In this document: positions 36,441 to 61,674 of the stretch, piece after piece
Numbering within the stretch: position 1 is the stretch's first letter
Layout: every line of letters starts with the position of its first letter
Source of the DNA: Limonium bicolor
Taxonomy: Eukaryota; Streptophyta; Magnoliopsida; Caryophyllales; Plumbaginaceae
NCBI GenBank assembly: GCA_023374045.1
Contig: CM041777.1
Location: 459,290,251-459,354,250, forward strand
Direction of reading: 5' to 3'
DNA length: 64,000 nucleotides
The notes under the pieces: model-generated
What the model was told of the DNA's origin: nothing
What the model saw: the letters and a program-made list of their open reading frames with translations, nothing else
Database searches by the model: none
Program-made: the position numbers and the translations under genes

Positions 36441-36760
36441 GTCCGAACTTCCGTCCGGACATGGAAGCTCGGACAGGCTCTGTTGGGCAAGGATTTTTCA
36501 CTCTCGAACTGTGTCCGAACTTCGGAAAGTCCGGACACAAGTTCGGACGTCCCTGTTGCTTTCCTTAGAATTATCCTCGAACTGTGTCCGAACTTGGGAA
36601 GTCCGGACACATGTTCGGACATATAGAATTCTGCTTTGGATTTTCCTCGACTCATGTCCGAACTTCCGAAGTCCGGACACAAGTTCGGACATGTGTCTGT
36701 TTTGGGTTTAAAGTCACGGCTTGTGTCCGAACTTGGACACTCGGACACAAGTTCGGACAG
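36441..36760. repeat. Five-unit TGTCCGAAC...GTTCGGACA palindrome array in LTR1
   Basis: Units begin at 36440, 36512, 36585, 36655 and 36724 (spacing 69-73 bp). A typical unit has TGTCCGAACTT, then GTCCGGACACAAGTTCGGAC, so it holds nested palindromes. Copies are at 46858-47177 (LTR2) and 57290-57608 (LTR3). Open frames with repeated VRT/SGH residues here are translations of the repeat. Confidence 0.95.
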
Positions 36761-37769
36761 GCCACTATATGGACCAAAAATTATTGTTTTAAGATGGGAA
36801 TTGTTACCTAAAAATAGTAGTTGGTTAGTAAAGATATTATAAGGTTATGTGAGACATGTTAGGTGGGTTTTAAAGGCAATTAAAAGGATGAAAAGATGTA
36901 ACAAGTGTAAAATAAAAGTAAACTAGTAATGTGAGTAGATAATGTTAATAATGGATTAGTGCGTTAATTAACCGACGTTACTAATGTGTATAGGATTCTC
37001 TCAAGGTGGAAACGAAACGAGGCAAGGACCAAGGTATGGTTTTCTTGCAGTCTGTTGCCTACCGGTTTACACCGGCTTGGGTGTTGTTTGCTTTTCTGCG
37101 TGTTACGACCTTATAAGACTAAGGCATGAAAAGAGTTTACAGTTGTTATACATTATGATGTTGTAAGGTTATGACTCCTTTCCCTTGGTTGTCTAACAAG
37201 ACCTAAATGTTTGCTTGTATGTGACTTAACAAAATGTTGTGTGATCACTAACAAGTGCTAACCGGGGGAGTGAGGAGTCCGGTTGTTCCGGCCACGCGTG
37301 TGATGGATGGGGGTCGATATCATATCCGGTTCGGCTCTCTTGGTGTATGTATAGGTGGTATTCCAATTTGGTTTCTACCTTCCCTTAGCTTATCCAAAGC
37401 TAGATACTGACTCACGTCGGGCCATAGGGGCATACGTATGTTATTTCGGTGTGCTTGGGATTACTATATCCGACACACCTTTGGTATAAGTTAACCGTTC
37501 TATATAACCGGACGGTAACGAGGATGGTAACGAGCTTAACATGGGATTGGTAAAAATCCCTAGGCTCTCATGGTATACTAACTATGGTGGAAGGTTCCTT
37601 GTGAGAACCGATTTTATGGTGTTATGTATTGATGTTGTGGTGCTATGCAATTTCCCTTGCTATGCTATGGTATATATATATATGTTGGATGTTCTAAAAT
37701 GAATGCCATGTTATTATGACAATTGGTTGCGCGTATCCCGGTAGTCGATGGGCTGCGCGTTAGCCATAC

Positions 37770-37797
37770 CAGCAAAGGTGCTGACCCCCTCGGGGGC
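37770..37797 (+). other. Paired hairpins in LTR1 (AGCA-aagg-TGCT, then CCCCCTCGGGGG)
   Basis: An AGCA/TGCT stem with a four-base loop is followed at once by a C5/G5 stem. A T-rich run and TTGCAG come next, near 37804-37816. Equivalent pairs are at about 48189-48216, 58617-58644, 61292-61318 and, on minus, 604-630 with different loops. Confidence 0.75.
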
Positions 37798-38192
37798 TCC
37801 ATATTTTTATTGCAGGATGAGGATCGAAGAGGCAGAGTGGCTCTAGGTCCTAGGTTGTTGATATACTTTTGGATAAGTAGGTTGTTGAGCCCGGGATGCG
37901 CCTGTGCTCCCGAGGCGTTACATTTTGATACCGTTGTTATACAGTGTTGGATGATTATGGTTGGAGATGTGTTGTAAATTAAATACTCGGTATGGTTGGT
38001 TATGTTTATATATGGATGTTAGTTACTATGCTCGGGAGTCTGATCATCAGACCGATACACTTGTATTTATTCTGCCTAGTTAACCACGTGGGTGGTTAAC
38101 GGCGTTGTAACACAAAGCGAATAGTTATTGTTTGGTTGGTTTCCGCTGCGATTTCGGTAGATGATAGGGCGTTGTAGGGGTGTTACAAAAAG

Positions 38193-39864: not shown

Positions 39865-40920
39865 GTACCGCCTAAACCGTTAAATGAAAAAGTGATTGCT
39901 TACCGCATTTCATGCATGAGTGTTAGTGAGTCAAAATATAACCACCTAGTAATGAGCTAAAGAGTCATGTGGAAAACACCTAAAGTTAGGCAATTTGAAA
40001 CTTAGGAACCTTCAATATCTGCTATCCAATCCCGCCCACACCAAACCCTGAAGAAACCGCCATCGACATCACCGACTTCCCATTGGAGCAATGTCAGGTT
40101 ATCCAACCAGGTATGATACTTCTAGAGGGATACCTGACACCGGAAGCACAAATCCACATCATCAGACGATGCGATGAACTTGGAGCAAAACCAGGAGGGT
40201 TCTACACACCCGAGTACCCGAACGGAGCAAGGATGCAATTGAAGATGATGTGCATGGGTAAGGACTGGAACCCTTACACCAAGTCATATCAAGAAGTACG
40301 AGCTGAAGATGGAGCAACAGTACAAGTATACCAGAGGAGTTCCATGCGGTCGTTAACCACGCCGTGGGAATTGCTCAGCAAGTTGAAACGGAATCAATTC
40401 CAAGTGTAAAAGCAGATCTATGCGTTGTAAACTTCTACCAGAAAGGTGGACGGTTGGGTATGCACCAAGACAAGGACGAGTCACCCGAGTCTCTAAGTAA
40501 GGGAGTACCCGTGGTGTCTTGGTCCATTGGTGACACCGCAGTGTTTGTGTATGGCGAGCAGAAGCGTGCTGACCTCGCAAAGAAGCTATTGCTAAAATCG
40601 GGAGATGTATTAATCATGGGTGGGCAATCAAGGATGCTATACCATGGCATCAGAAAGATCAAACTGAATACCGCACCGTCGGCAGTGATCAATGCCACAC
40701 ACATGAAACCCGGACGTTTGAATTTGACCTTCAGGCAGTTTTAAGCCTTGTATAATTATGTGGTAACCAGTATGTATTAAGGATATTGTAAGTATGAATC
40801 ATGGCGACAGTATAAGCCAATGAATGTTGTAAAAAGAGTGTGTTAATGAATAAAGTGGAGTTGTTTGAATCATGTCAACCGTGTTGTTACCCAATACTTA
40901 TTAGTTTGCCAATGAATTAG
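39865..40920 (+). other. Predicted alternative intron 3 (contains the AlkB exon), copy 1
   Basis: The donor CCAG|GTACCG at 39865 (phase 1) has two in-frame partners. Acceptor ACTTAG|GAAC at 40005 joins gag to AlkB (141-bp intron). Acceptor AATTAG|GCTG at 40920 joins gag to protease (1,056-bp intron). Both keep phase 1. Unspliced, gag ends at TAA 39873-39875. Copy 2: 50291-50434 or 50291-51346. Confidence 0.68.
40006..40744 (+). pseudogene. AlkB-type dioxygenase exon, copy 1 (single-base frameshift)
   Basis: Same sequence as the intact copy at 50435-51174 except that one A is missing near 40322-40324 (CAGTACAAG against CAGTAACAAG). The N-terminal lid region (to about 40322) and the catalytic part (from about 40330 to TAA 40742-40744) are therefore in different frames. 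All metal and 2-oxoglutarate residues remain encoded. Because the change is one base in an otherwise perfect copy, a sequencing error is as likely as a real mutation. Confidence 0.88.
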
Positions 40921-44292: not shown

Positions 44293-44614
44293 TGTTCATA
44301 TGTATAGGGTACGGGGCGTACCCCTTTTAAGGGGGGTAGAGCCGTTTCGGTTATGGTTGTATACGACATGTATATGTATACATTGTCTATGTTATGTTAC
44401 AGACCGTTGTGTCTGAATGGTATTATGTGGTTTGGACCTGAGTCCGTTGTGGTATTATGTGGTTGGACCTCGAGTCCGTTGTGGTGTAAGAATGATGGAA
44501 AGGTTGGTAATGATGTTTTGGAAGTTGGTGTTATAAGATGTTTCCCGTGTTCTAATAGTAAGATATGTGGGAAGTATGAACTTTGGGGACAAAGTTCTTT
44601 TAAGGGGGGTAGAT
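44293..44614 (+). other. 3' non-coding region with two polypurine tracts, copy 1
   Basis: TTTTAAGGGGGGTAGA occurs at 44325-44340 and again at 44599-44613, the second directly at the LTR2 start. Between them is a two-copy ~34-bp repeat (GGTATTATGTGGTT...GAGTCCGTTGTGG, about 44419-44485). Copy 2: tracts at about 54751-54766 and 55025-55040. Confidence 0.82.
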
Positions 44615-45238
44615 TGAAATACCCCAAACCTTGGTATGTTGGTTAAACATTAAAACATGATTTATTAAGACTAAAAAGAGTCTTAGAAACCTTAGTAAAC
44701 AAATTTAAGCAAAAGGAAACACAAATGTGCTTTAAAGTCAATAAGAGCCAAAATGTGCTCTAAGCTTGGGATAAACTTGAGTAAGACCTAATGAGCTTAC
44801 CAAGACCTCATTTATATACTAATGAACATATTAAACCAATTACCAAAGAAAACCAAGCTTGAAAACAAGTTAAAACACAAAATGTGCTTTAAGAAGTCTT
44901 AAAGCACGTTTTTGAAAAATTGTCTTGTAAATGAGTTTTGAATGGCTAAATGTCCATCATTACTCTTAAATATATAGTGTACTATATAGTATCACATTTG
45001 GGTGGCTATATTAGTGGGAAATCAAAAATTTCACTTCTAAGTGCCTTGTTTAGGTGAATAGTACTTTTTATAAGCTAGTTTATAACATATGTTGTATTAA
45101 GTAATTAAATTGACAAACAAAGACTATAATACCCTCATAATAATAAGGGGGCCGGTTTTCCTTAAGTGTGGTGACTCACCACTCTCTTATTAATGTATTA
45201 AGTAAGTAAAGATAAGTAAATAAACTTACTTTTTACTT

Positions 45239-45253
45239 TATAAGTATAAATAT
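45239..45253 (+). promoter_or_regulatory. Putative TATA region of LTR2
   Basis: TATAAGTATAAATAT about 625 bp into the LTR, followed by C/T-rich DNA suitable for a start site. The same sequence is in LTR3 (55665-55679). LTR1 has only TTATTTAAGTAAAATAT at the equivalent place. Confidence 0.55.
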
Positions 45254-46857
45254 CTCTTAAAAGCAAATTCTATCTTCACTCTCATTTCTTTCCTTCATTC
45301 ACACGGTTTCCCACCTCTCTTCTTCCTTGTTCTCTCTCGGTAATACTACTACCACCATGGAAGTTCCAACTTTGACCACTTGCTAAATCTAGCTCACTTG
45401 TCCAAATCAAAAACAAAGACCACCAATCTCTTCCTCTCATCAAGCTCTTCATTCCTATCTTCTCAAAACTCCAAGAGCTCCATTTCGGTGCCAAGGTGTT
45501 CTACCATTGAAGGAGCTTGAGCTTGTATTTTTACATATTGTTACTCTCCTGGGCTTCTAGGTAAGGAATCTCAAATAAAAACTTCATTTCCTCCTTGTTT
45601 TTGTCATGTCCGAAAATACACATTGAAGGAGCTTTTTATGTGACTTTGTTCTAGCTTCATTCCAACCCTTCATGGACTAGGTGGAGTCCTCTCTTGCTAG
45701 ATATTCAAACTCTCTTCAAAGAGCAAGGTAAAACAACTACATTAATGTTTTTGAAACAATGTAAAACTAGGGTTTACAATGAGATGGAGCTTATAGCTTG
45801 AATACTCATTATAATGTTTGTATATTGTTTAGAACTTGTCAAAGGATCAAGTACCCTATCGGTTTTCTAAAGGAAACAAGAAAGAAGTTATTTTGCAAAA
45901 GAGGTAAATCTACTAACCTAATGTTGTTTTAATGCCTTAGGAGAAATGAGCTTATGAATGCTTATTAAAACTACCTAAAGAGCCAATGGTGAATGACTTA
46001 GTAAAGTGTTCCCAAGAGCTTAGTAAAAGGCATATGAGTTGTTGAGTGTATTTGCAGGTTAAAGGCAAATATATTGTGGAAATTCAGTGTTTATGATTTG
46101 TGCATTTTAAGGGCCTAAGAGCCATGTCATTTAAGGGCCTAAGTGCCATGCAATTTAAATTGTGCACTATATTGTGATGTAGTGCCTTGTGAGTGAAGTT
46201 TGTGTATAATAAGTACTTGATGGATTTTTAGTGTTCTTGGTTGTTTGTTGGTAAAAACAATGTGTTTTGGTTTAGTAATGTTCTAGGAGAACCTATGTCG
46301 AAATTTAGGTAACGAATGTGAAGTTCTAGGTGTTAAAATGGATTTGATAAGTTAAGGAGTATTTAAAATGGTTAAGTGTTGTTCTTGTGTAGGAAACACG
46401 CATTAAGGTGATTTGGGGATGTAACAAGGACTTAGGCATGAGCTTGAGATTTTAGTATGTACCAAAGCCATTTTGGACTTAGGTAAATACTTAGGCAAAC
46501 TTTGGTAAATTAAGGAGAAAGTGTACACTAGGAAAGAGTTCCAAGAATGATGTAAGGAGTAGGTTGGTAAGAAATAATGCTTAAGAGATGATGTTAGGAT
46601 GAGGAGAAAGCATTTTGGGATAGTAGTTTTTATAGGTAAGAAAAACCATTTAGGAACTTAATGTAAAATGTTGTAAGTGTTGGTGGATTTTACAAGGAAC
46701 ATGAGTGACAAGTAAAACATGGAATTATGAGTGTTTAAGATGATATTATGACACTAGAATATACCTAGGAACGTTTGGTAAGTTTTTACAATCAATGGTG
46801 GCTTTGGTGAAATTTGGCTAAGTGTTTAGAGGGTTTTAAAGGTGAGAATTTTGCCTT

Positions 46858-47177
46858 GTCCGAACTTCCGTCCGGACATGGAAGCTCGGACAGGCTCTGT
46901 TGGGCAAGGATTTTTCACTCTCGAACTGTGTCCGAACTTCGGAAAGTCCGGACACAAGTTCGGACGTCCCTGTTGCTTTCCTTAGAATTATCCTCGAACT
47001 GTGTCCGAACTTGGGAAGTCCGGACACATGTTCGGACATATAGAATTCTGCTTTGGATTTTCCTCGACTCATGTCCGAACTTCCGAAGTCCGGACACAAG
47101 TTCGGACATGTGTCTGTTTTGGGTTTAAAGTCACGGCTTGTGTCCGAACTTGGACACTCGGACACAAGTTCGGACAG
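46858..47177. repeat. Palindrome array in LTR2
   Basis: Five units identical in layout to 36441-36760, spacing about 70 bp. Confidence 0.95.
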
Positions 47178-48615
47178 GCCACTATATGGACCAAAAATTA
47201 TTGTTTTAAGATGGGAATTGTTACCTAAAAATAGTAGTTGGTTAGTAAAGATATTATAAGGTTATGTGAGACATGTTAGGTGGGTTTTAAAGGCAATTAA
47301 AAGGATGAAAAGATGTAACAAGTGTAAAATAAAAGTAAACTAGTAATGTGAGTAGATAATGTTAATAATGGATTAGTGCGTTAATTAACCGACGTTACTA
47401 ATGTGTATAGGATTCTCTCAAGGTGGAAACGAAACGAGGCAAGGACCAAGGTATGGTTTTCTTGCAGTCTGTTGCCTACCGGTTTACACCGGCTTGGGTG
47501 TTGTTTGCTTTTCTGCGTGTTACGACCTTATAAGACTAAGGCATGAAAAGAGTTTACAGTTGTTATACATTATGATGTTGTAAGGTTATGACTCCTTTCC
47601 CTTGGTTGTCTAACAAGACCTAAATGTTTGCTTGTATGTGACTTAACAAAATGTTGTGTGATCACTAACAAGTGCTAACCGGGGGAGTGAGGAGTCCGGT
47701 TGTTCCGGCCACGCGTGTGATGGATGGGGGTCGATATCATATCCGGTTCGGCTCTCTTGGTGTATGTATAGGTGGTATTCCAATTTGGTTTCTACCTTCC
47801 CTTAGCTTATCCAAAGCTAGATACTGACTCACGTCGGGCCATAGGGGCATACGTATGTTATTTCGGTGTGCTTGGGATTACTATATCCGACACACCTTTG
47901 GTATAAGTTAACCGTTCTATATAACCGGACGGTAACGAGGATGGTAACGAGCTTAACATGGGATTGGTAAAAATCCCTAGGCTCTCATGGTATACTAACT
48001 ATGGTGGAAGGTTCCTTGTGAGAACCGATTTTATGGTGTTATGTATTGATGTTGTGGTGCTATGCAATTTCCCTTGCTATGCTATGGTATATATATATAT
48101 ATGTTGGATGTTCTAAAATGAATGCCATGTTATTATGACAATTGGTTGCGCGTATCCCGGTAGTCGATGGGCTGCGCGTTAGCCATACCAGCAAAGGTGC
48201 TGACCCCCTCGGGGGCTCCATATTTTTATTGCAGGATGAGGATCGAAGAGGCAGAGTGGCTCTAGGTCCTAGGTTGTTGATATACTTTTGGATAAGTAGG
48301 TTGTTGAGCCCGGGATGCGCCTGTGCTCCCGAGGCGTTACATTTTGATACCGTTGTTATACAGTGTTGGATGATTATGGTTGGAGATGTGTTGTAAATTA
48401 AATACTCGGTATGGTTGGTTATGTTTATATATGGATGTTAGTTACTATGCTCGGGAGTCTGATCATCAGACCGATACACTTGTATTTATTCTGCCTAGTT
48501 AACCACGTGGGTGGTTAACGGCGTTGTAACACAAAAGCGAATAGTTATTGTTTGGTTGGTTGTTTCCGCTGCGATTTCGGTAGATGATAGGGCGTTGTAG
48601 GGGTGTTACAAAAAG

Positions 48616-48641
48616 TGGTATCAGAGCGAAGTATCGCTCTG
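48616..48641 (+). other. Primer-binding site and hairpin, copy 2
   Basis: TGGTATCAGAGC at 48616-48627 after the LTR2 end; its 3' half forms the same 8-bp stem as in copy 1. Confidence 0.88.
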
Positions 48642-48829: not shown

Positions 48830-50290
48830 ATGGCAGGTAGACCACGAGGGAGAGGCCGTGGGCGCGGTACTGGAGATTTGGGTAACCAGGGCGATGATAC
48901 TACGGCGCAGACTATGGCTGAGGCAGTTGCAGCCGCCGTAGCCCAGTTGGTACCCGATTGGTTGCTGCTATTCAGCAAGGGCAACAGCCCGGAGTTCAGC
49001 CACCACCACCACCGCCACGAGAGACCAATTGGGTCAAGGCGTTGGCTGATCTGAGACCGCCATCATTCAATGGGGAGACTGATCCTCGAAAACTGGAGGC
49101 GTACATCTCCGAACTGGAGACCGCCTACGAGACCTTGGCAGTACCTGCTGAAGCTAAGGTCCGTCTTGCCGCCTACTACTTGAAGGGTACGGCGCAGAGT
49201 TGGTGGAAGTTGGTGAAGGAGGACAGGATGGCTGATCCTGACTTTGGTTGGAGGGAGTACACGGCTCTACTGCGAGCCAAGTACTACCCGGTACACGTGC
49301 AGGAGGCCAAGCGCCTCGAGCTGGACAGTCTGAAGCAGGGGGATAAGATGTCGGTTGATGACTACTATACCGCATTCACCGGCCTTATCCACCTGTTACC
49401 AGACCTTGGGTATTCGAACCGGGTGTTGGTGAACCGGTTCTACAATGGACTAAGCCACCGTCTCCGCTATGGGATGGGGCCAGCTGAGTATACCACCTTG
49501 CAGGTAATTAGAGTACCTTGTTGTGAATCCATTTATACCATGAGTGAATGTTAATGTGAGTTGGTAAGTTGTTTTTGCGGGGCATGACTGACATCCTAAA
49601 TTACAGGAGTGCTATCATGCCGCTGCTAAGGTTGAAATTACCGTCCGTCTGAGGGACGAGGAGAATGCGCACAAGCGCAAGGCCACCAACGAGGGCCAGA
49701 ATCAGCAAGGGTATGGGGGAGGAAAGAAAAAGAAACCCTACCCTCAGCCCCAGAAGGGCCAGTACCAGGGTGACAAGGGCCAAGCCCAGACCACCACATC
49801 TGATGAGCCACTGAAGCTCACGTATGCGTATGCGGCGAAGCCTCTACGCTCCTACCCGCCTAAGGGTAATTACTTAACCATGTGTATCTAGTTGAGGTGT
49901 ATGTTGTTGAGATGGAAAGTGAGTATTGATTGTGTGTTGTTATAGCAGCTAGCGCGGGTTCTGGACCGGAGCGCCACTTTTACTGTAAGTGGTGCAATGG
50001 AGACCACCCCGGCAAAGACTGCAAGGGGAATGATGTGAGGTGCCGTCACTGCCAGAAGATGGGGCACCGTGAGTTTGAGTGTTGGACGAACCCCAACGGC
50101 AGAAACTACAAGCCAAAGGGGCAGTGGAAGGGTAATACTACCACGACCACTGAAGGCCCGAAGGCGATTACTCAGCAGACTTCTGACAAGAAGTACACTG
50201 AATCCCAGAAGGGGAAGGCTACGGGGTCCGGCAAGGCCACCCTGAATGTGGTGGACCGGTCAGAGGCACCAGGATCCTCTTCGAGACCAG
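48830..50290 (+). pseudogene. gag: Gag of AlkB element, copy 2 (three exons, one frameshift)
   Basis: ATG at 48830, with the G/R-rich N-terminus intact (MAGRPRGRGRGRGTG). One T is missing near 48956-48959 relative to copy 1, so the capsid part (from about 48958) is in the next frame. Exon 1 ends at 49503, exon 2 is 49607-49865, exon 3 is 49946-50290. Introns, phases and both zinc knuckles are the same as in copy 1. The breaks in the two copies are at different places, so each copy is intact where the other is broken. Confidence 0.86.
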
Positions 50291-50434
50291 GTACCGCCTA
50301 AACCGTTAAATGAAAAAGTGATTGCTTACCGCATTTCATGCATGAGTGTTAGTGAGTCTAAATATATAACCACCTATGTAATGAGCTAAAGAGTCATGTG
50401 GAAAACACCTAAAGTTAGGCAATTTGAAACTTAG

Positions 50435-51174
50435 GAACCTTCAATATCTGCTATCCAATCCCGCCCACACCAAACCCTGAAGAAACCGCCATCGACATCA
50501 CCGACTTCCCATTGGAGCAATGTCAGGTTATCCAACCAGGTATGATACTTCTAGAGGGATACCTGACACCGGAAGCACAAATCCACATCATCAGACGATG
50601 CGATGAACTTGGAGCAAAACCAGGAGGGTTCTACACACCCGAGTACCCGAACGGAGCAAGGATGCAATTGAAGATGATGTGCATGGGTAAGGACTGGAAC
50701 CCTTACACCAAGTCATATCAAGAAGTACGAGCTGAAGATGGAGCAACAGTAACAAGTATACCAGAGGAGTTCCATGCGGTCGTTAACCACGCCGTGGGAA
50801 TTGCTCAGCAAGTTGAAACGGAATCAATTCCAAGTGTAAAAGCAGATCTATGCGTTGTAAACTTCTACCAGAAAGGTGGACGGTTGGGTATGCACCAAGA
50901 CAAGGACGAGTCACCCGAGTCTCTAAGTAAGGGAGTACCCGTGGTGTCTTGGTCCATTGGTGACACCGCAGTGTTTGTGTATGGCGAGCAGAAGCGTGCT
51001 GACCTCGCAAAGAAGCTATTGCTAAAATCGGGAGATGTATTAATCATGGGTGGGCAATCAAGGATGCTATACCATGGCATCAGAAAGATCAAACTGAATA
51101 CCGCACCGTCGGCAGTGATCAATGCCACACACATGAAACCCGGACGTTTGAATTTGACCTTCAGGCAGTTTTAA
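50435..51174 (+). CDS. Captured AlkB-type 2-oxoglutarate/Fe(II) dioxygenase (ALKBH1-like), intact copy
   Basis: Open from acceptor AG at 50433-50434 to TAA 51172-51174, about 245 codons without a stop. Counting from codon 50512 (220 residues), it shows the AlkB double-stranded beta-helix signature: NFY (117-119), HQDKDES with Fe ligands His128 and Asp130, third ligand His188 in LYHGI, and the 2-oxoglutarate-binding RLNLTFRQF end (Arg212, Arg218). The MMCMGKDWNP segment resembles plant ALKBH1-type proteins. AlkB enzymes oxidatively demethylate DNA or RNA bases; the substrate here is unknown. There is no early ATG, so it is probably made as a Gag-AlkB fusion by splicing (phase 1, Gly at the joint). 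It lies between gag and protease in both copies, so it is part of the element and not a stray insertion. Alternative: a passive passenger, but the motifs and open frame argue against long neglect. Confidence 0.93.
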
Positions 51175-51346
51175 GCCTTGTATAATTATGTGGTAACCAG
51201 TATGTATTAAGGATATTGTAAGTATGAATCATGGCGACTAAGCCAATGAATGTTGTAAAAAGAGTGTGTTAATGAATAAAGTGGAGTTGTTTGAATCATG
51301 TCAACCGTGTTGTTACCCAATACTTATTAGTTTGCCAATGAATTAG

Positions 51347-52779
51347 GCTGTGCACTCGGAACGGGAGGTACACTGAGTGTCTGCAATAAGGCAGAAGCCG
51401 GCAAGAGCGGCACAATCCTCACCGGTACCTTTCCAGTGAATGGCGTGGATGCATCGATCTTGTTCGACTCTGGAGCCTCACACACATTCATTTCGCTATC
51501 ATTTGCGAAGAGGCTGGGGTTAGATGGTGAAGAGATGCCAGACTTCGTGGTCACTCTCCCGTCGAAAGAGCGGATCAGATGTACCCGCTACTACCGAGAT
51601 GCTATTGTTCGAATCATGGATGAGGAGTTTCCGATCGACTTGATAGAGTTCGACGGACTGGGTTTTGATGTGATTGTCGGGATGAACTGGTTGGAGCGGT
51701 ACAAGGGTAGAATCCTATGTGCCGAGCATCGACTGCTTCTTAGGAGTCCATCTGGGGTTACTATATCATACCGCCAGAGGCCCAGGGAGCCTTCGACACA
51801 GATCATCACCGCCATGGCCATGTATCGTGAGTTGCGACGGGGAAATGATATATACCTCTGCTATGTCCAGGACATAGAGAGAGACCCTGAGTTTAGCCCA
51901 GATGTGCCGGTAGTGTCGGAGTTTCCTGATGTATTTCCTAAGGAACTGCCGGGCATGCCGCCAGCACGAGAGGTTGAGTTTGAGATTGATCTAATTCCGG
52001 GCACCGGACCCATTGCGAAGGCACCTTACCGTATGGCTCCAGCAGAGATGACAGAGCTCAAGGAGCAACTGAGAGACCTACTCGACAAGGGCTTTATCCG
52101 CCCTAGTGTGTCACCATGGGGAGCGCCGGTCCTCTTCGTGAAGAAGAAGGACGGTAGCCTCCGCCTATGTATTGATTATCGGGAGCTGAATGCTGTTACG
52201 GTGAAGAACCGTTACCCTTTACCACGCATCGACGATCTATTTGATCAGCTTAGGGGAGCATCAGTATTCTCCAAGATAGACCTACGTTCCGGATATCACC
52301 AGATTGCCATCCGTGACAGTGATATCGAAAAGACAGCCTTCAGAACTAGGTATGGGCACTATGAGTTCACCGTTATGCCGTTTGGCTTGTCAAATGCACC
52401 AGCAAAGTTCATGGACTTAATGAACCGTTTGTTCCAAGATCAGTTGGACAAATCAGTGGTAGTCTTCATCGATGACATACTTGTGTATTCGAAATCGAGA
52501 GGTGAGCATGAAAGCCACCTGAGAGATGTATTGCAGACGTTGAGAAAGAATCAGCTGTATGCTAAATTTTCCAAGTGTGAATTTTGGTTGAACCAAGTAT
52601 CATTCCTTGGACATGTGATTTCTGAGGCCGGGATCGCTGTTGATCCGGCAAAGATAGATGCAGTGCGCACCTGGCCTAGCCGAAGACAGTCACCGACATC
52701 AGGAGCTTCCTCGGTCTGGCAGGTTACTATAGGAGATTGTGAAGGACTTCTCCAGTGTCTCGAAGCCGATGACTTTTGA
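51347..52779 (+). pseudogene. pol: Protease and reverse transcriptase, AlkB element copy 2
   Basis: Exon from acceptor AG 51345-51346. Protease ([13 protein letters not shown] near 51460-51500) and RT run together without a break through FIDDIL and [11 protein letters not shown] one-base deletion near 52680 (CCTAGCCGAAG against CCTAGGCCGAAG in copy 1) shifts the thumb, and further small deletions follow near 52737 and 52774. The protease-RT join that is broken in copy 1 is intact here. Confidence 0.92.
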
Positions 52780-53159
52780 TGAAAAAGGATGCACCATTCG
52801 AGTGGACAGTCGACTGTGAGAGAGCTTTCACGAGTCTCAAGGATGCTCTGACATCTGCACCGGTTCTGACATTACCAGACGGTCCAGATGGTTTTGAGGT
52901 CTATTGCGACGCATCAGGCAGGGGTATGGGTTGTGTGTTGATGCAACACGGGAAGGTCGTGGCTTACGCCTCCCGACAGCTGAAGAAGCATGAGGAGAAC
53001 TACCCTACCCACGACTTAGAATTGGGGGCCATTGTCTTCGCACTGAAGATATGGCGACATCACTTGTATGGGGTAAGTGTGACGATTTATTCTGACCACA
53101 AGAGCTTGAAATACTTGTTCACTCAGAAAGAGTTGAACATGAGGCAGAGGGTGGGTTGA
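52776..53159 (+). pseudogene. pol: RNase H, AlkB element copy 2
   Basis: [14 protein letters not shown] start, then [36 protein letters not shown] and [14 protein letters not shown]. It ends at TGA after NMRQR, where copy 1 has two more bases (GAGAAGGTGG against GAGGGTGG). Further 1-3 base deletions near 53163 and 53190 separate it from the connection. Confidence 0.9.
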
Positions 53160-53412
53160 ATTCTGAATGATTATGATATCGATTTACAGATAAGGAGGGT
53201 AAGGCAAACGTGGTAGCTGACGCATTGAGTCGCCGAGCACACTCTCTCCATTCGCTAGTCTCTCATACTGGCTTGGTTGAAGAGGTGCGGAGTGCTCAGA
53301 TGACGGATCAGTATATGGTGGAAATTGACAGAAGCTTATTGATGGCACATTCGAGGGTCAGAAGTACGACTTCAGACTCCACGATGATGACCTGATTAGG
53401 CTTAATGGCCGG
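53160..53412 (+). pseudogene. pol: RNase H-integrase connection, copy 2
   Basis: [16 protein letters not shown] from about 53210, open to 53395. One base is missing near 53328 compared with copy 1, shifting the linker before the integrase frame opens at about 53413. Confidence 0.85.
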
Positions 53413-54717
53413 TTGTGTATACCGAGGAGTAGCGCTGAGCTGAAGGAGCGCATACTGAGTGAATCCCATTGTTCTACGACATCGATTCACCCCGGAGCTT
53501 CAAAGATGTATAAGGATATGAAACGTTATTTCTGGTGGGCTGGAATGAAAAAGGATGTGAATGACTATGTATTGAGGTGTCTCACTTGTCAGAAGGTCAA
53601 GTTTGAGCACCGACGGCCTGGTGGTATGGTGCAGCCAATGCCAGTGCCGGAGTGGAAGTTCCATGACATATCTATGGACTTCGTGGTAGGGCTTCCGCCT
53701 ACAAGGGGAGGTCTGAATATGATTTGGGTGGTAGTTGACCGACTGACCAAGGTGACTCGATTCATTCCGATGAAGGACACCTGGAAAGTGGCAAGATTGG
53801 CGGAATTATTCGATAAAGAGATTGTTAGACATCATGGTGTACCAAAGACGATAGTATCTGACAGAGATACCAGATTCTTATCCAGATATTGGAAGTCTAC
53901 ACGAGAGGCACTTGGTACTGAACTGAAATTGAGCACAGCGTTCCACCCACAGACAGATGGTCAGAGTGAGCGCACCATCCAGACACTTGAGGATATGCTA
54001 CGTGCATGTGCACTTGACTTTCAGACCAGCTGGATTGATAAGTTACATCTGATCGAGTTTAGTTACAACAACAGTTATCATGCATCGATCAAGATGTCTC
54101 CCTTCCAGGCATTGTACGGTAGACCATGCCGCACGCCATTATGCTGGGATGAGTCGAGTGAGACGGTCATTATAGGACCAGAGTATCTTGAGCAAGTTCA
54201 GGCAGAAGTTCGCCAGATCAGGGCTAATATGAAAGCAGCTCAGGATAGACAGAAGTCGTACGCAGATGTGCGCCGACGTGACTTGGAGTTCGCCGTGGGC
54301 GATCAGGTATTTCTTAGGGTATCCCCCATGAAGGGAGTATTTCGTTTTGGCCAGAAGGGCAAGTTGAGCCCGAAATATGTAGGTCCATATGTTGTGACGG
54401 AGCGGATCGGCCCGGTAGCTTATAGACTTGATTTACCCGCCGAGCTGGGCAAGGTACATGATGTATTTCATGTGTCCCAGTTGAAGAAGTATATGTCTCA
54501 TCCGTCTCATGTGCTTCAGCCGGAAAGGCTAACCTTAGAGCCAACCATGCGATCAGTGGAGACTCCGGTACGGGTTCTGGATACTAAGACTCGAGACACT
54601 CGCCATAAGTCCGTGAGACTGGTGAAGGTCCTCTGGTCTAACCAGGACGTTGAGGAGGCCACTTGGGAGCTGGAAGAAAAGATGAAGGCGAAGCACCCGT
54701 CATTGTTTGCTTCTTAG
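53413..54717 (+). CDS. pol: Integrase with chromodomain, AlkB element copy 2 (intact)
   Basis: 434 codons, unbroken. HHCC zinc domain (ESHCSTTSIH, CLTCQ), DDE core (ISMDFVVGLP, SDRDTRFL, DGQSERTIQ), KLSPKYVGPY region, [12 protein letters not shown] and the chromodomain-like end VLWSNQDVEEATWELEEKM, stop TAG 54715-54717. The start is where the frame opens; the native product is cut from a longer polyprotein. Copy 1 carries three short deletions in the same region. Confidence 0.92.
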   Translation: MCIPRSSAELKERILSESHCSTTSIHPGASKMYKDMKRYFWWAGMKKDVNDYVLRCLTCQKVKFEHRRPGGMVQPMPVPEWKFHDISMDFVVGLPPTRGGLNMIWVVVDRLTKVTRFIPMKDTWKVARLAELFDKEIVRHHGVPKTIVSDRDTRFLSRYWKSTREALGTELKLSTAFHPQTDGQSERTIQTLEDMLRACALDFQTSWIDKLHLIEFSYNNSYHASIKMSPFQALYGRPCRTPLCWDESSETVIIGPEYLEQVQAEVRQIRANMKAAQDRQKSYADVRRRDLEFAVGDQVFLRVSPMKGVFRFGQKGKLSPKYVGPYVVTERIGPVAYRLDLPAELGKVHDVFHVSQLKKYMSHPSHVLQPERLTLEPTMRSVETPVRVLDTKTRDTRHKSVRLVKVLWSNQDVEEATWELEEKMKAKHPSLFAS

Positions 54718-55040
54718 TGTTCATATGTATAGGGTACGGGGCGTACCCCTTTTAAGGGGGGTAGAGCCGTTTCGGTTATGGTTGTATACGACATGTATAT
54801 GTATACATTGTCTATGTTATGTTACAGACCGTTGTGTCTGAATGGTATTATGTGGTTTGGACCTTGAGTCCGTTGTGGTATTATGTGGTTGGACCTCGAG
54901 TCCGTTGTGGTGTAAGAATGATGGAAAGGTTGGTAATGATGTTTTGGAAGTGTGGTGTTATAAGATGTTTCCGTGTTCTAATAGTAAGATATGTGGGAAG
55001 TATGAACTTTGGGGACAAAGTTCTTTTAAGGGGGGTAGAT

Positions 55041-58000
55041 TGAAATACCCCAAACCTTGGTATGTTGGTTAAACATTAAAACATGATTTATTAAGACTAA
55101 AAAGAGTCTTAGAAACCTTAGTAAACAAATTTAAGCAAAAGGAAACACAAATGTGCTTTAAAGTCAATAAGAGCCAAAATGTGCTCTAAGCTTGGGATAA
55201 ACTTGAGTAAGACCTAATGAGCTTACCAAGACCTCATTTATATACTAATGAACATATTAAACCAATTACCAAAGAAAACCAAGCTTGAAAACAAGTTAAA
55301 ACAAAAATGTGCTTTAAGAAGTCTTAAAGCACGTTTTTGAAAAATTGTCTTGTAAATGAGTTTTGAATGGCTAAATGTCCATCATTACTCTTAAATATAT
55401 ATGTGTACTATATAGTATCACATTTGGGTGGCTATATTAGTGGGAAATCAAAAATTTCACTTCTAAGTGCCTTGTTTAGGTGAATAGTACTTTTTATAAG
55501 CTAGTTTATAACATATGTTGTATTAAGTAATTAAATTGACAAACAAAGACTATAATACCCTCATAATAATAAGGGGGCCGGTTTTCCTTAAGTGTGGTGA
55601 CTCACCACTCTCTTATTAATGTATTAAGTAAGTAAAGATAAGTAAATAAACTTACTTTTTACTTTATAAGTATAAATATCTCTTAAAAGCAAATTCTATC
55701 TTCACTCTCATTTCTTTCCTTCATTCACACGGTTTCCCACCTCTCTTCTTCCTTCTTCCTTGTTCTCTCTCGGTAATACTACTACCACCATGGAAGTTCC
55801 AACTTTGACCACTTGCTAAATCTAGCTCACTTGTCCAAATCAAAAAAAAGACCACCAATCTCTTCCTCTCATCAAGCTCTTCATTCCTATCTTCTCAAAA
55901 CTCCAAGAGCTCCATTTCGGTGCCAAGGTGTTCTACCATTGAAGGAGCTTGAGCTTGTATTTTTACATATTGTTACTCTCCTTGGCTTCTAGGTAAGGAA
56001 TCTCAAATAAAAACTTCATTTCCTCCTTGTTTTTGTCATGTCCGAAAATACACATTGAAGGAGCTTTTTATGTGACTTTGTTCTAGCTTCATTCCAACCC
56101 TTCATGGACTAGGTGGAGTCCTCTCTTGCTAGATATTCAAACTCTCTTCAAAGAGCAAGGTAAAACAACTACATTAATGTTTTTGAAACAATGTAAAACT
56201 AGGGTTTACAATGAGATGGAGCTTATAGCTTGAATACTCATTATAATGTTTGTATATTGTTTAGAACTTGTCAAAGGATCAAGTACCCTATCGGTTTTCT
56301 AAAGGAAACAAGAAAGAAGTTATTTTGCAAAAGAGGTAAATCTACTAACCTAATGTTGTTTTAATGCCTTAGGAGAAATGAGCTTATGAATGCTTATTAA
56401 AACTACCTAAAGAGCCAATGGTGAATGACTTAGTAAAGTGTTCCCAAGAGCTTAGTAAAAGGCATATGAGTTGTTGAGTGTATTTGCAGGTTAAAGGCAA
56501 ATATATTGTGGAAATTCAGTGTTTATGATTTGTGCATTTTAAGGGCCTAAGAGCCATGTCATTTAAGGGCCTAAGTGCCATGCAATTTAAATTGTGCACT
56601 ATATTGTGATGTAGTGCCTTGTGAGTGAAGTTTGTGTATAATAAGTACTTGATGGATTTTTAGTGTTCTTGGTTGTTTGTTGGTAAAAACAATGTGTTTT
56701 GGTTTAGTAATGTTCTAGGAGAACCTATGTCGAAATTTAGGTAACGAATGTGAAGTTCTAGGTGTTAAAATGGATTTGATAAGTTAAGGAGTATTTAAAA
56801 TGGTTAAGTGTTGTTCTTGTGTAGGAAACACGCATTAAGGTGATTTGGGGATGTAACAAGGACTTAGGCATGAGCTTGAGATTTTAGTATGTACCAAAGC
56901 CATTTTGGACTTAGGTAAATACTTAGGCAAACTTTGGTAAATTAAGGAGAAAGTGTACACTAGGAAAGAGTTCCAAGAATGATGTAAGGAGTAGGTTGGT
57001 AAGAAATAATGCTTAAGAGATGATGTTAGGATGAGGAGAAAGCATTTTGGGATAGTAGTTTTTATAGGTAAGAAAAACCATTTAGGAACTTAATGTAAAA
57101 TGTTGTAAGTGTTGGTGGATTTTACAAGGAACATGAGTGACAAGTAAAACATGGAATTATGAGTGTTTAAGATGATATTATGACACTAGAATATACCTAG
57201 GAACGTTTGGTAAGTTTTTACAATCAATGGTGGCTTTGGTGAAATTTGGCTAAGTGTTTAGAGGGTTTTAAAGGTGAGAATTTTGCCTTGTCCGAACTTC
57301 CGTCCGGACATGGAAGCTCGGACAGGCTCTGTTGGGCAAGGATTTTTCACTCTCGAACTGTGTCCGAACTTCGGAAAGTCCGGACACAAGTTCGGACGTC
57401 CCTGTTGCTTTCCTTAGAATTATCCTCGAACTGTGTCCGAACTTGGGAAGTCCGGACACATGTTCGGACATATAGAATTCTGCTTTGGATTTTCCTCGAC
57501 TCATGTCCGAACTTCCGAAGTCCGGACACAAGTTCGGACATGTGTCTGTTTTGGGTTTAAAGTCACGGCTTGTGTCCGAACTTGGACACTCGGACACAAG
57601 TTCGGACAGGCCACTATATGGACCAAAAATTATTGTTTTAAGATGGGAATTGTTACCTAAAAATAGTAGTTGGTTAGTAAAGATATTATAAGGTTATGTG
57701 AGACATGTTAGGTGGGTTTTAAAGGCAATTAAAAGGATGAAAAGATGTAACAAGTGTAAAATAAAAGTAAACTAGTAATGTGAGTAGATAATGTTAATAA
57801 TGGATTAGTGCGTTAATTAACCGACGTTACTAATGTGTATAGGATTCTCTCAAGGTGGAAACGAAACGAGGCAAGGACCAAGGTATGGTTTTCTTGCAGT
57901 CTGTTGCCTACCGGTTTACACCGGCTTGGGTGTGTTGTTGCTTCTGCGTGTTACGACCTTATAAGACTAAGGCATGAAAAGAGTTTACAGTTGTTATACA

Positions 58001-59036
58001 TTATGATGTTGTAAGGTTATGACTCCTTTCCCTTGGTTGTCTAACAAGACCTAAATGTTTGCTTGTATGTGACTTAACAAAATGTTGTGTGATCACTAAC
58101 AAGTGCTAAGGGGGGAGTGAGGAGTCCGGTTGTTCCGGCCACGCTGTGATGGATGGGGGTCGATATCATATCCGGTTCGGCTCTCTTGGTGTATGTATAG
58201 GTGGTATTCCAATTTGGTTTCTACCTTCCCTTAGCTTATCCAAAGCTAGATACTGACTCACGTCGGGCCATAGGGGCATACGTATGTTATTTCGGTGTGC
58301 TTGGGATTACTATATCCGACACACCTTTGGTATAAGTTAACCGTTCTATATAACCGACGGTAACGAGGATGGTAACGAGCTTAACATGGGATTGGTAAAA
58401 ATCCCTAGGCTCTCATGGTATACTAACTATGGTGGAAGGTTCCTTGTGAGAACCGATTTTATGGTGTTATGTATTGATGTTGTGGTGCTATGCAATTTCC
58501 CTTGCTATGCTATGGTATATATATATATATGTTGGATGTTCTAAAATGAATGCCATGTTATTATGACAATTGGTTGCGCGTATCCCGGTAGTCGATGGGC
58601 TGCGCGTTAGCCATACCAGCAAAGGTGCTGACCCCCTCGGGGGCTCCATATTTTATTGCAGGATGAGGATCGAAGAGGCAGAGTGGCTCTAGGTCCTAGG
58701 TTGTTGATATACTTTTGGATAAGTAGGTTGTTGAGCCCGGGATGCGCCTGTGCTCCCGAGGCGTTACATTTGATACCGTTGTTATACAGTGTTGGATGAT
58801 TATGGTTGGAGATGTGTTGTAAATTAAATACTCGGTATGGTTGGTTATGTTTATATATGGATGTTAGTTACTATGCTCGGGAGTCTGATCATCAGACCGA
58901 TACACTTGTATTTATTCTGCCTAGTTAACCACGTGGGTGGTTAACGGCGTTGTAACACAAAAGCGAATAGTTATTGTTTGGTTGGTTGTTTCCGCTGCGA
59001 TTTCGGTAGATGATAGGGCGTTGTAGGGGTGTTACA
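55041..59036 (+). repeat. LTR3 of the AlkB-element array
   Basis: 3,996 bp. Close to LTR2, with several extra single-base losses in its last third: AACCGGGGGAG reads AAGGGGGGAG near 58108, ACGCGTGTG reads ACGCTGTG near 58143, and T runs are shorter near 58653 and 58770. Ends GGGGTGTTACA at 59036, next to an unrelated flank. Confidence 0.95.
57290..57608. repeat. Palindrome array in LTR3
   Basis: Five units matching 36441-36760 and 46858-47177. Confidence 0.95.
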
Positions 59037-61674
59037 ATTTCATGGGAGCCTTGTTGAGTGTATTCGCAGGTTGAAGGCATATATATATGTGGAAATTCAG
59101 TGGTTTAAGATTATTGTTATTTAAGGGCCTAAGTGCCAAGATTTTAAGTTTAAGCATTAATGATGATGTGGGAAGTTTTGGTGTAAATGGGTGTTAAGCT
59201 ATTGTGATGAGAATTTTTTGTGTATTGTTGTTTGGTGGAGAAAAACCATGGTTAGGAGGTTACTATATACTAGAGAACCCATGGCAAAAATTTAAAGGAG
59301 AGTTTAAGTGTTTAAGATATCCTAAGGAATTTAATGAATAAGGAAGTACTAGGAATGTTCTATGGGTTGTCTTGATGAAAAAGGGTTGAAGTTAAGAGTT
59401 TTAATGACTTATGATGACTTAGGTATCACCATGGAGTATTAGGAATCAAAAGAATGTATTTGGTATTTAGGACTTAGGCAAATGTTGGTGCACATCTAGG
59501 AACGAAAATAATGTAATGATGATGGAAGTTTAATCTTGTTAAGGAACCTTAAGTGAATGTTTAAAAGAGTTTAGATAGTGAGAGATGCTTGGGAGATGAT
59601 GTTATAGTGGTGAAGGAAACATTTGGCATAGTGGTTACATAGGTATGAACCACCACCTAGAAAAACTAGAGGAAAACATTACAAGTTTAGCATTATCACA
59701 AGGAAAATGCATAATGACTAAGATGGATTTTGGGTGGATGAATTAAGGTATTTTAAGGAGGGCTTAAGGTGTATTTGAGGTGCCCAAATGAGGTTATAAC
59801 ATATGAGGATATATGAGGAGAAGTTTGGAGTTGAAAAAGAAATTAGAAACAAGTTTTTTAGAGCCGACCGGCCTTAGGACCGGACTTGCAAGGTCGGTCG
59901 GGCTCTGTTACACTACCGGAAAATGTTTCTGGAATCGACCGGACTTAGGACCGGACTTACAAGTCGGTCGGCGGGCTTCTGTTTTGTGAGGGAAATTAGT
60001 TTCTGGAATAGACCGGACATGGGACGGACTTGTCAAGTCCGGTCGGCATGAATTTAGTACGGATTATAAGTCTCTGGAATCGACCGGACATAGGACCGGA
60101 CATGTAAGTCCGGTCGGAGTGAATTTCCAACGGTAAAAGGTACTGGAATGGACCGACTTGGCAACGGTCGGTAAGTCCGGTCGAGCCTAAAAATAAAAAA
60201 AAAAAAAAGAAAATTTCAATTTCTAAGAATGGTAATGGGTAATGAGGTATGCCCTTGGTAGGGTAGTAGTATGATTGGGGCCCTAAGAACTTAAGGAATT
60301 AAGTTAAGATTAAGTATAAGTTTTAGTGTTTAAAGTTAAGTTTGTAAGACTAAGTGATAAAGACTTGAGAGGTTATTGAGTGGAAGTCCTTAGGGACTAA
60401 GTGAGTTAGGTAAGGTGCAAATAACTAATACCTAAAAATGAATGAATGTTTTAGGTTTGTGAGTTGGGACCCCGAAGAAGATTAGTCAAACAACGATCGA
60501 CGGTGAACGGTACAATCCTTTTCGTGACCTGCTTGCTAACGAGGGTCCCTCGGCTTGTGTGCTATCTGTTTATTTGCTATGACTAAAACAAGATAAAGCA
60601 TGCAACCGGTTTTATTGTTCTCGTTGTGATTGTGTTATATTTACACTAACCCGCGAGATTTGAGATTGTTACTAACCAAGTTTAGTACTTACTGAGTTGA
60701 GAATAAGAGTTAAGTTGATGGTTGTTGGTTAATGCCCGTTAAGGCTTAGCTAGCACATGGTGTTTAAGATGTCTACTAACTGGAACTTGAGTGAGGAAAC
60801 CCGGGACCGATCTCCGGTCATGCATGCTAAGTGAAAGGGGGACGGTATCTGAATCAGATCCGCCCTCCGCTTAAGGACTTGTCTTCGGACTTGTAGCCTA
60901 GGGCCGGATGCCGGCTCAGCTACGCTGGACTCCCGTCCAGAGTAGGTGGCATTAAGATGGGGCGGTGGGATCACCTAAATCCCAGGTTCGAATTAAGCTA
61001 CAACCAATCCCTTCCAGGAAAGGTTTGTATACTGAGATTAAGAGATGAGATTGAGATTAAGATTAAGGTAAGGTAAGGAACTGAGATTAAGGAAATGAGG
61101 ACTAAGGAGGGGGGTTACTAACCCACTTGTTAAGGGAACGCTTGAGTCGTTCATTGCTTGTGAACTATATATGTTCATCTGTGGTTATTGTTATTGCACT
61201 TCATATTATGTTTGTGTATGTAATCAATTTCCATGCTATCGACAATTAGTCGTCGTAGCCCCGTTAGCTTGGGGGCCATGAGAGGGTGTACCAGCATTCG
61301 TGCTGACCCCCTCGGGGCTATTTTACACTTGCAGGTAAGAGGCCCATGAGGACGCACTACGAGAGTAGGAGCGGTTAGACTTAGGAGGGGACATTTATTT
61401 TGAATTCGGGTTACGCCTGTGCACCCGACTGTTTATATTAAATTGTTGTAAGTTGAGATTACGTTGAGATACTAGTACTCGGTTGGTTGTGAGATTGTGT
61501 ATGTTGATGTTTTGAGTTGGATAAGTATTTTGGTTAAGTATTGTAAATATTAATCCGGTATATTCTAACGATCAGACCGTGGCAAGGTCCAGGTGTTGTT
61601 TATTTCCGCTGCGACGTTTTCGATTAAGTGTTCAGATTGCGATAACCATGATAGGCTTTGGATGGGGTATTACA
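59037..61674 (+). mobile_element. 3' portion of a related LTR (5' part missing)
   Basis: Begins within text resembling the AlkB-element LTR about 1.4 kb from its start (TGTTGAGTGTATT.GCAGGTT.AAGGCA). It ends GGGGTATTACA at 61674. It carries a five-unit GACCGGAC palindrome array and a hairpin pair at about 61292-61318, followed by TTGCAGGTAAGAGG. No PBS follows, so it was a 3' or solo LTR. Short tracts of GAGATTAAG repeats lie near 61030-61105. No gene seen. Confidence 0.82.
59865..60186. repeat. Five-unit GACCGGAC palindrome array
   Basis: Units begin near 59865, 59936, 60009, 60081 and 60150 (about 71 bp). They pair CGACCGGAC with GTCCGGTCG or a variant and share a TCTGGAAT-like spacer. Closest in motif to 1885-2275. 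Confidence 0.9.

What the first reader, a model, noticed from the sequence alone, without database searches (positions are those of the whole stretch)
50435..51174. AlkB-type dioxygenase carried inside a Tekay-type LTR retrotransposon, between gag and protease
Seen: an unbroken ~245-codon frame with HQD, LYHGI and RLNLTFRQF signatures at the same place in two internal regions (40006-40744 and 50435-51174). Known: AlkB domains reverse base methylation, several plant RNA viruses carry one, and an Arabidopsis m6A demethylase (ALKBH9B) has been reported to promote mobilisation of the Onsen retrotransposon. Inference: the element captured a host ALKBH1-like gene and may use it to strip methyl marks from its own RNA or cDNA. 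The other Tekay element in this window has nothing at this position. I do not know of a described Tekay element with this domain, though I cannot search.
Basis: partly seen in the sequence, partly recalled or inferred. Interest (0 to 1): 0.95.

Follow-up and report, generated by a model that had tools for sequence, protein, structure and literature searches.

The report
Retrotransposon carrying its own AlkB demethylase
In this plant genome a family of jumping genes carries a gene segment for an AlkB-type enzyme between its coat-protein and protease genes; the segment is likely kept by selection, is predicted to be spliced onto the coat protein, and would then likely erase methyl marks from the element's own RNA or DNA copy.

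Summary
An ALKBH1-type AlkB exon (50435-51174) lies between gag and protease of a chromovirus-type LTR retrotransposon. It is a family feature: the genome search scored its 150 best AlkB places, and 41 of 41 copies examined have gag, AlkB and protease in that order, as far as each part was found. AlkB looks constrained: dN/dS 0.14 and 0.11 within two subfamilies, about 0.10 between them; five catalytic residues are present in 41 of 41 sequences.

The new point is the anatomy. AlkB sits inside the intron between nucleocapsid and protease. One donor (40 of 41) faces two acceptors, at AlkB (AG in 41 of 41) and at protease (38 of 41). In 11 of 11 subfamily-B copies the AlkB exon has no Met in its first 75 residues, so the whole domain is most simply made as a Gag fusion. 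No RNA evidence was available, and the copies were picked by AlkB score.

Prior art: orchid Ogre/Tat-type elements with an ALKBH5-like enzyme active on m6A in vitro (PMC9289625). Here lineage, AlkB subfamily, position and predicted expression differ. I found no report of this in the papers searched. Verdict: new variant of a known kind.

The parts
34193..38192 (+). first LTR (borders by alignment, uncertain by a few bases)
44611..48611 (+). middle LTR, shared by both internal regions
55037..59037 (+). last LTR
48616..48627 (+). primer-binding-site-like TGGTATCAGAGC after the middle LTR (also 38193 and 15342); that this fits initiator tRNA-Met is recalled
48830..49503 (+). gag exon 1 (capsid part, PF03732 and Ty3_capsid); frame broken once near 48958 in this copy
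49504..49606 (+). predicted gag intron 1, GT-AG, phase 0
   Evidence: reading; spacing of 93-105 bases in the A copies where it could be measured
49607..49865 (+). gag exon 2
49866..49948 (+). predicted gag intron 2, phase 1, with a tandem acceptor (TAGCAG); removed exactly in 2 of 30 A copies (L017, L026)
49949..50290 (+). nucleocapsid exon with zinc knuckles, ends at a phase-1 donor CCAG|GT
50291..50434 (+). short form of intron 3, to the AlkB acceptor
50435..51174 (+). AlkB exon, 245 codons and stop; numbered from its first whole codon, catalytic H153, D155, H213, R237, R243
51275..51280 (+). AATAAA after the AlkB stop; may be chance, not tested
   Evidence: reading
50291..51346 (+). long form of intron 3, to the protease acceptor, skipping AlkB
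51347..52779 (+). protease and RT coding part, same frame as 51436-52779
52776..53159 (+). RNase H part
53413..54717 (+). integrase with C-terminal SH3_Tf2-1 match and weak chromodomain match
40006..40744 (+). AlkB exon of the first internal region, frame broken once

Best explanation
A family of chromovirus-type LTR retrotransposons carries an ALKBH1-type AlkB exon inside the predicted intron that separates its gag and protease coding parts; the exon is likely kept by selection, is predicted to be spliced onto Gag, and the fusion would likely ride into virus-like particles and remove methyl groups from the element's RNA or single-stranded cDNA. Shown by calls: position, presence across the family, catalytic residues, constraint in the sampled copies, and one conserved donor with two conserved, mostly frame-compatible acceptors. 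Predicted: three products from one RNA. If intron 3 is kept, translation stops just inside it and gives Gag; if the AlkB acceptor is used, Gag-AlkB; if the protease acceptor is used, Gag-Pro-Pol. Untested: splicing of intron 3, packaging, enzyme activity and substrate.
For: 41 of 41 copies colinear. AlkB dN/dS 0.143 within A (435 pairs), 0.113 within B (55), 0.100 between (330). Catalytic residues in 41 of 41 sequences. Donor CCAG|GT in 40 of 41, AlkB acceptor AG in 41 of 41, protease acceptor TTAGG in 38 of 41. Donor phase 1 in 28 of 29 measurable A copies and 9 of 9 measurable B copies by the nearest homologous codon; phase 1 at AlkB in 34 of 40, at protease in 34 of 38. Intron length to AlkB falls 14, 18 and 7 into the three frames, which rules out a family-wide readthrough or frameshift. 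No Met in the first 75 residues of the exon in 11 of 11 B copies. Pairwise difference 10.2% in the short intron against 4.7% in AlkB. Intron 2 removed exactly in L017 and L026. Confident AlkB-length model, pLDDT 93.6.
Against: No RNA evidence; none of the 41 copies lacks the short intron 3 (not measurable in 4 B copies), and the genome-wide junction search did not complete. Copies were chosen from the best AlkB scores, which lowers dN. Protease within B has dN/dS 0.495 and RT within B 0.230. Measured from a distant nucleocapsid match, donor phase was 1 in only 2 of 9 B copies. The AlkB acceptor in most A copies is A-rich (CTTAAAG), not a strong plant acceptor (recalled standard). In most A copies a Met lies before the core domain, so a separate start is possible there. 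No gag domain is listed for any of the 120 public proteins shown of 221 found with a Gag-AlkB query.
Confidence: 0.55

Rival explanations
1. AlkB is selected, but is made as a separate protein from its own start codon or a subgenomic RNA and acts in trans on element or host RNA, as was proposed for the orchid ORF2.
For: Most A copies listed have a Met (PMEQC) near residue 26 of the exon, before the core domain. The orchid enzyme is a separate ORF (PMC9289625).
Against: 11 of 11 B copies have no Met in the first 75 residues of the exon and none in the 6-18 open codons before it. The window copy lacks the Met at PMEQC.
Confidence: 0.2
2. AlkB is a host function that rides in the element: the enzyme mainly serves the plant, for example in repair of alkylated nucleic acids, and the elements are its carriers.
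For: The domain is AlkB-like in sequence, and ALKBH1-type proteins are found across plants.
Against: Constraint is seen across many element copies and two subfamilies, not at one locus, which points to selection at the level of the element.
Confidence: 0.08
3. AlkB is a passenger that happened to land in an intron and does nothing.
For: An intron would make an insert harmless. The sample was chosen by AlkB score.
Against: dN/dS 0.10-0.14 with catalytic residues kept between subfamilies whose dS is near saturation; the flanking intron differs about twice as much.
Confidence: 0.04

Closest known systems
Gypsy_Pa_2799 family: Phalaenopsis Ty3/Gypsy elements with an ALKBH5-like ORF2 (PMC9289625; abstract, introduction, methods, results and discussion read)
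   Same: A plant Ty3/Gypsy LTR retrotransposon family that carries an AlkB-type gene with cofactor residues kept. There the protein demethylates m6A RNA in vitro.
   Different: There: Tat/Ogre relatives, 25.5 kb with 6.4 kb LTRs, tRNA-Arg primer site, Gag-Pol in one ORF and AlkB in a separate 565-residue ORF2 of ALKBH5 type. Here: chromovirus-type pol, about 14.4 kb with 4 kb LTRs, another primer site, ALKBH1-type AlkB as an exon between gag and protease.
Ogre elements with a partly spliced intron (PMC6317226, passages; its references there)
   Same: Splicing of part of the transcripts would decide how much of the polyprotein is made.
   Different: In Ogre the intron lies between GAG-PROT and RT; here it lies between nucleocapsid and protease and holds a whole enzyme exon. 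Partial splicing is not shown here.
Sunflower Tekay elements with an additional ORF (PMC11728184, abstract and passages)
   Same: An extra ORF conserved over many copies of Tekay elements.
   Different: That protein was likened to dsRNA-binding proteins; the words AlkB and oxygenase do not occur in its text.
Rice ALKBH1 (PMC10469495, passages)
   Same: Same AlkB subfamily by the names of the relatives. Rice ALKBH1 removes 6mA from single-stranded DNA in vitro and lowers 6mA in R-loops.
   Different: A host gene, not in a retrotransposon. That PDB 5xeg/5xoi is this rice protein is recalled; one search gives only a generic name.
AlkB domains of plant RNA viruses (named in PMC9289625)
   Same: A mobile genome that carries its own AlkB.
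   Different: RNA viruses; no relation tested here.

Membership tests
AlkB / ALKBH1-type 2OG-Fe(II) dioxygenase | Pfam 2OG-FeII_Oxy_2 domain over its full length | tested here: met
   E 6.9e-48, profile positions 1-194 of 194
AlkB / ALKBH1-type 2OG-Fe(II) dioxygenase | Fe(II) and 2OG residues HxD...H and R...R | tested here: met
   H153, D155, H213 invariant and R237, R243 at 90% or more in 34 sequences; all five in 41 of 41 element sequences
AlkB / ALKBH1-type 2OG-Fe(II) dioxygenase | Nearest relatives are ALKBH1 and not ALKBH5 | tested here: met
   PDB hits at E 0.1 or better are 5xeg/5xoi, E. coli AlkB and ALKBH1, none named ALKBH5; several named plant relatives are called ALKBH1D or ALKBH1C. 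No ALKBH5 sequence was put in the tree.
AlkB / ALKBH1-type 2OG-Fe(II) dioxygenase | Demethylase activity | not testable with these tools
   needs an enzyme assay
Tekay-clade chromovirus | Ty3/Gypsy domain order gag, protease, RT, RNase H, integrase | tested here: met
Tekay-clade chromovirus | C-terminal chromodomain | tested here: inconclusive
   PF00385 at 21.3 bits, under the cut-off of 25.1
Tekay-clade chromovirus | Place of RT/RH/INT within Tekay in a reference tree | not tested
   No reference set held; the other chromovirus of the window is 63% (INT) and 74% (RT) identical
Orchid Gypsy_Pa_2799 family | ALKBH5-like enzyme in a separate ORF beside an uninterrupted Gag-Pol ORF | tested here: not met
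   ALKBH1-type exon between nucleocapsid and protease
Ogre-type spliced element | Intron between protease and RT | tested here: not met
   Protease and RT are in one ORF, 51436-52779
Ogre-type spliced element | Intron removed from only part of the transcripts | not testable with these tools
   Splice sites and phases only; no RNA data, junction search unanswered

The most novel reading that the evidence does not exclude
A chromovirus uses one splice donor and two acceptors as a three-way switch (Gag, Gag-AlkB, Gag-Pro-Pol) and so packages its own nucleic-acid demethylase as a Gag fusion, which cleans methylated bases from the RNA and single-stranded cDNA inside the particle. It would be a retroelement's counter to host adenine methylation acting at reverse transcription, acquired independently of the orchid case.
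Probability: 0.4. Interest if true: 0.88.

Novelty: new variant of a known kind. Interest (0 to 1): 0.76.

Why it matters
It would be a second acquisition of a demethylase by plant LTR retrotransposons, in another lineage and from another AlkB subfamily, pointing to nucleic-acid methylation as a recurrent barrier to retrotransposition. If the Gag fusion is real, the enzyme is delivered to where reverse transcription happens, and both the splice junction and the substrate become directly testable. The copies in this window are young, so RNA may be easy to look for.

Tried and rejected
Passenger: rejected on dN/dS, catalytic residues and the intron contrast. Family-wide readthrough or frameshift into AlkB: rejected, because intron lengths fall in all three frames. 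Single-locus accident or chance ORF: rejected. Recent capture from an angiosperm gene: not supported by the tree, but fast evolution of the element branch could mimic an old split. Led nowhere: the gag protein search had 1456 candidates and none at E 0.001, so I could not tie the unnamed relatives P0001-P0004 and P0011 to retrotransposons; the viral-contig search gave one locus at 32% identity, not used further; the tRNA scan gave nothing and Rfam one plant snoRNA. Not achieved: the host's own ALKBH1 gene and its exon borders, an unbiased copy sample, copies with a spliced intron 3, a copy number, a fold comparison.

Full report
What is there. The window holds three LTRs of about 4 kb (34193-38192, 44611-48611, 55037-59037) with two internal regions between them. 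LTR pairs differ by 3, 8 and 7 substitutions over about 3990 aligned bases, so the insertion is young. The internal region codes for gag, protease, RT, RNase H and integrase, with a chromodomain match under Pfam's cut-off. Between nucleocapsid and protease lies an exon of 245 whole codons and a stop, 50435-51174. It matches PF13532 at E 6.9e-48 and PDB chain 5xeg/5xoi at E 3.4e-69 (that this is rice ALKBH1 is recalled). AlphaFold2 gives mean pLDDT 93.6 and pTM 0.91. The copy at 40006-40744 has its frame broken once, and pol of the copy at 51436-54717 is in three ORFs. The two internal regions differ by 24 indel events and only 6 substitutions, 16 of the 24 in short runs of one base by a rough test, so assembly errors are a fair suspicion.

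A family feature. The genome of the window (2.92 Gb, unnamed) was searched once with PF13532. The first look gave 38,325 candidate places, of which only the best 150 were scored; all 150 pass the cut-off and 149 have no stop inside the match. The total is not a copy count. I fetched 40 of these places in 5.2 kb pieces and used one more, L005. In 41 of 41 the matches found lie in the order gag, nucleocapsid, AlkB, protease, RT; gag was not found in 4, nucleocapsid in 1, RT in 2. They fall into subfamily A (30 copies, AlkB 88-98% identical to the window protein) and subfamily B (11 copies, 63-67%). The other chromovirus of the window (INT 63%, RT 74% identical) has nucleocapsid and protease in one ORF.

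Selection. By Nei-Gojobori counts, AlkB has dN 0.026 and dS 0.179 within A (0.143, 435 pairs), dN 0.012 and dS 0.105 within B (0.113, 55 pairs), and dN 0.193 with dS about 1.9, near saturation, between them (0.100, 330 pairs). In the same copies protease within A is 0.144 and RT within A 0.117. Against this, protease within B is 0.495 (9 rows) and RT within B 0.230 (4 rows). The sample was chosen by AlkB score, which lowers AlkB dN; that bias can hardly explain two subfamilies a third different in protein with the catalytic residues kept in 41 of 41 sequences, these being the window and 40 of the 41 copies. Of the AlkB frames used, 3 of 30 in A and 1 of 11 in B hold stops.

Intron structure. 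Gag is split by two predicted introns (49504-49606, phase 0; 49866-49948, phase 1). Intron 2 is missing exactly, donor to acceptor, in L017 and L026, 2 of the 30 A copies. In AlkB, L017 is nearer to the intron-bearing L012 (97.7%) than to L026 (92.4%), so the loss may have happened twice. Exact loss is what reverse transcription of a spliced RNA leaves; it speaks for intron 2 only. Intron 3 starts at the donor CCAG|GT, present in 40 of 41 copies. The AlkB acceptor keeps AG in 41 of 41, though L029 lacks the next base; the protease acceptor TTAGG is found in 38 of 41. Donor phase is 1 in 28 of 29 measurable A copies. In B it was 1 in only 2 of 9 when measured from a distant nucleocapsid match, but 1 in 9 of 9 when measured from the nearest homologous codon. 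Phase is 1 at AlkB in 34 of 40 and at protease in 34 of 38. Intron lengths to AlkB fall 14, 18 and 7 into the three frames, so neither readthrough nor a fixed frameshift could keep AlkB in frame across the family, while splicing could. Mean pairwise difference in 18 A sequences is 7.7% in the nucleocapsid exon, 10.2% in the short intron, 4.7% in AlkB, 10.2% in the first and 5.4% in the second half of the stretch after its stop, and 4.6% in protease. Four of the 11 B copies were printed in alignment and show the two acceptors, and three of the four the donor, L044 having lost it. In 11 of 11 B copies the AlkB frame has no Met in the first 75 residues of the exon nor in the 6-18 open codons before it; a separate start codon would lose the first part of the domain. 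This is the strongest argument that AlkB is made as a Gag fusion.

Proposed working. An RNA that keeps intron 3 ends Gag just inside it (SRPGTA, stop, window copy only). Splicing to 50435 would give Gag-AlkB; splicing to 51347 would give Gag-Pro-Pol. The fusion would enter particles by its Gag part and act on packaged RNA or cDNA. Rice ALKBH1 removes 6mA from single-stranded DNA in vitro and its loss raises 6mA in R-loops (PMC10469495, passages), which would fit nascent cDNA and RNA-DNA hybrids. For RNA the precedent is ONSEN, where ALKBH9B removes m6A and frees the RNA from stress granules (PMC12786077, passages). Which substrate applies here is open.

Origin. In a tree of 41 proteins rooted on five presumed bacterial ones (unnamed), the nine element proteins form one group (93/78). 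Together with five unnamed public proteins (P0001-P0004, P0011) they form a group at 98/96, which lies beside the other 22 rows, most of them named plant ALKBH1-like proteins and including conifer, fern, liverwort and Volvox; the branch joining those 22 has only 91/69. This suggests an old acquisition or a fast branch. Whether the unnamed proteins lie in retrotransposons is not known (one search found no gag relatives).

Known or new. The orchid case (PMC9289625; abstract to discussion read) set the kind: an AlkB gene in a Ty3/Gypsy element, active on m6A in vitro; that survey of 121 angiosperm genomes reported the domain in Phalaenopsis only. The element here is not a member of that family (see membership test). 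Searches of the paper library: ALKBH1, retrotransposon, Tekay, two of three (292 papers, 20 listed); AlkB with chromovirus (2); AlkB with further retrotransposon terms (20 and 14); papers with the orchid title (3). Among the papers listed I saw no chromovirus with AlkB. The library lacks most subscription papers and all bioRxiv preprints and supplements could not be read, so an unseen description remains possible; PMC6317226 (passages and one section) counts 314 groups of extra-ORF proteins in Ty3/gypsy elements, with domain matches listed only in a supplement. PMC7264820 and PMC11963269 were only searched for terms; neither text holds AlkB-related hits beyond the citation of the orchid paper in the latter.

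Noticed in passing
window 34193-59037; own genome C1 near 497.44-497.47 Mb: LTR-internal-LTR-internal-LTR array in the window; on C1 four AlkB places follow each other at 10,121, 10,043 and 10,097 bases, which looks like the same kind of tandem array. No matching target-site duplication was seen at the ends of the window array.
   Followed up: partly
window 36397-36748, 46814-47165, 57246-57597: Each LTR holds a repeat-like stretch with open frames on both strands (VRT-rich in translation); a similar stretch is at 14745-15164 in the other chromovirus.
   Followed up: no
window 5327-5433: Rfam match to plant snoRNA snoR71 (45.7 bits, gathering score 40) inside a stretch that also holds a gag-like ORF on the other strand, 4825-5982.
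   Followed up: no
L017, L026: Exact loss of gag intron 2 at the second AG of a tandem acceptor, in two copies that are not nearest kin in AlkB.
   Followed up: partly
P0183, P0198: In the liverwort Riccia and the fern Ceratopteris the ALKBH1-like domain is in one protein with PF23134 and PF06221.
   Followed up: no
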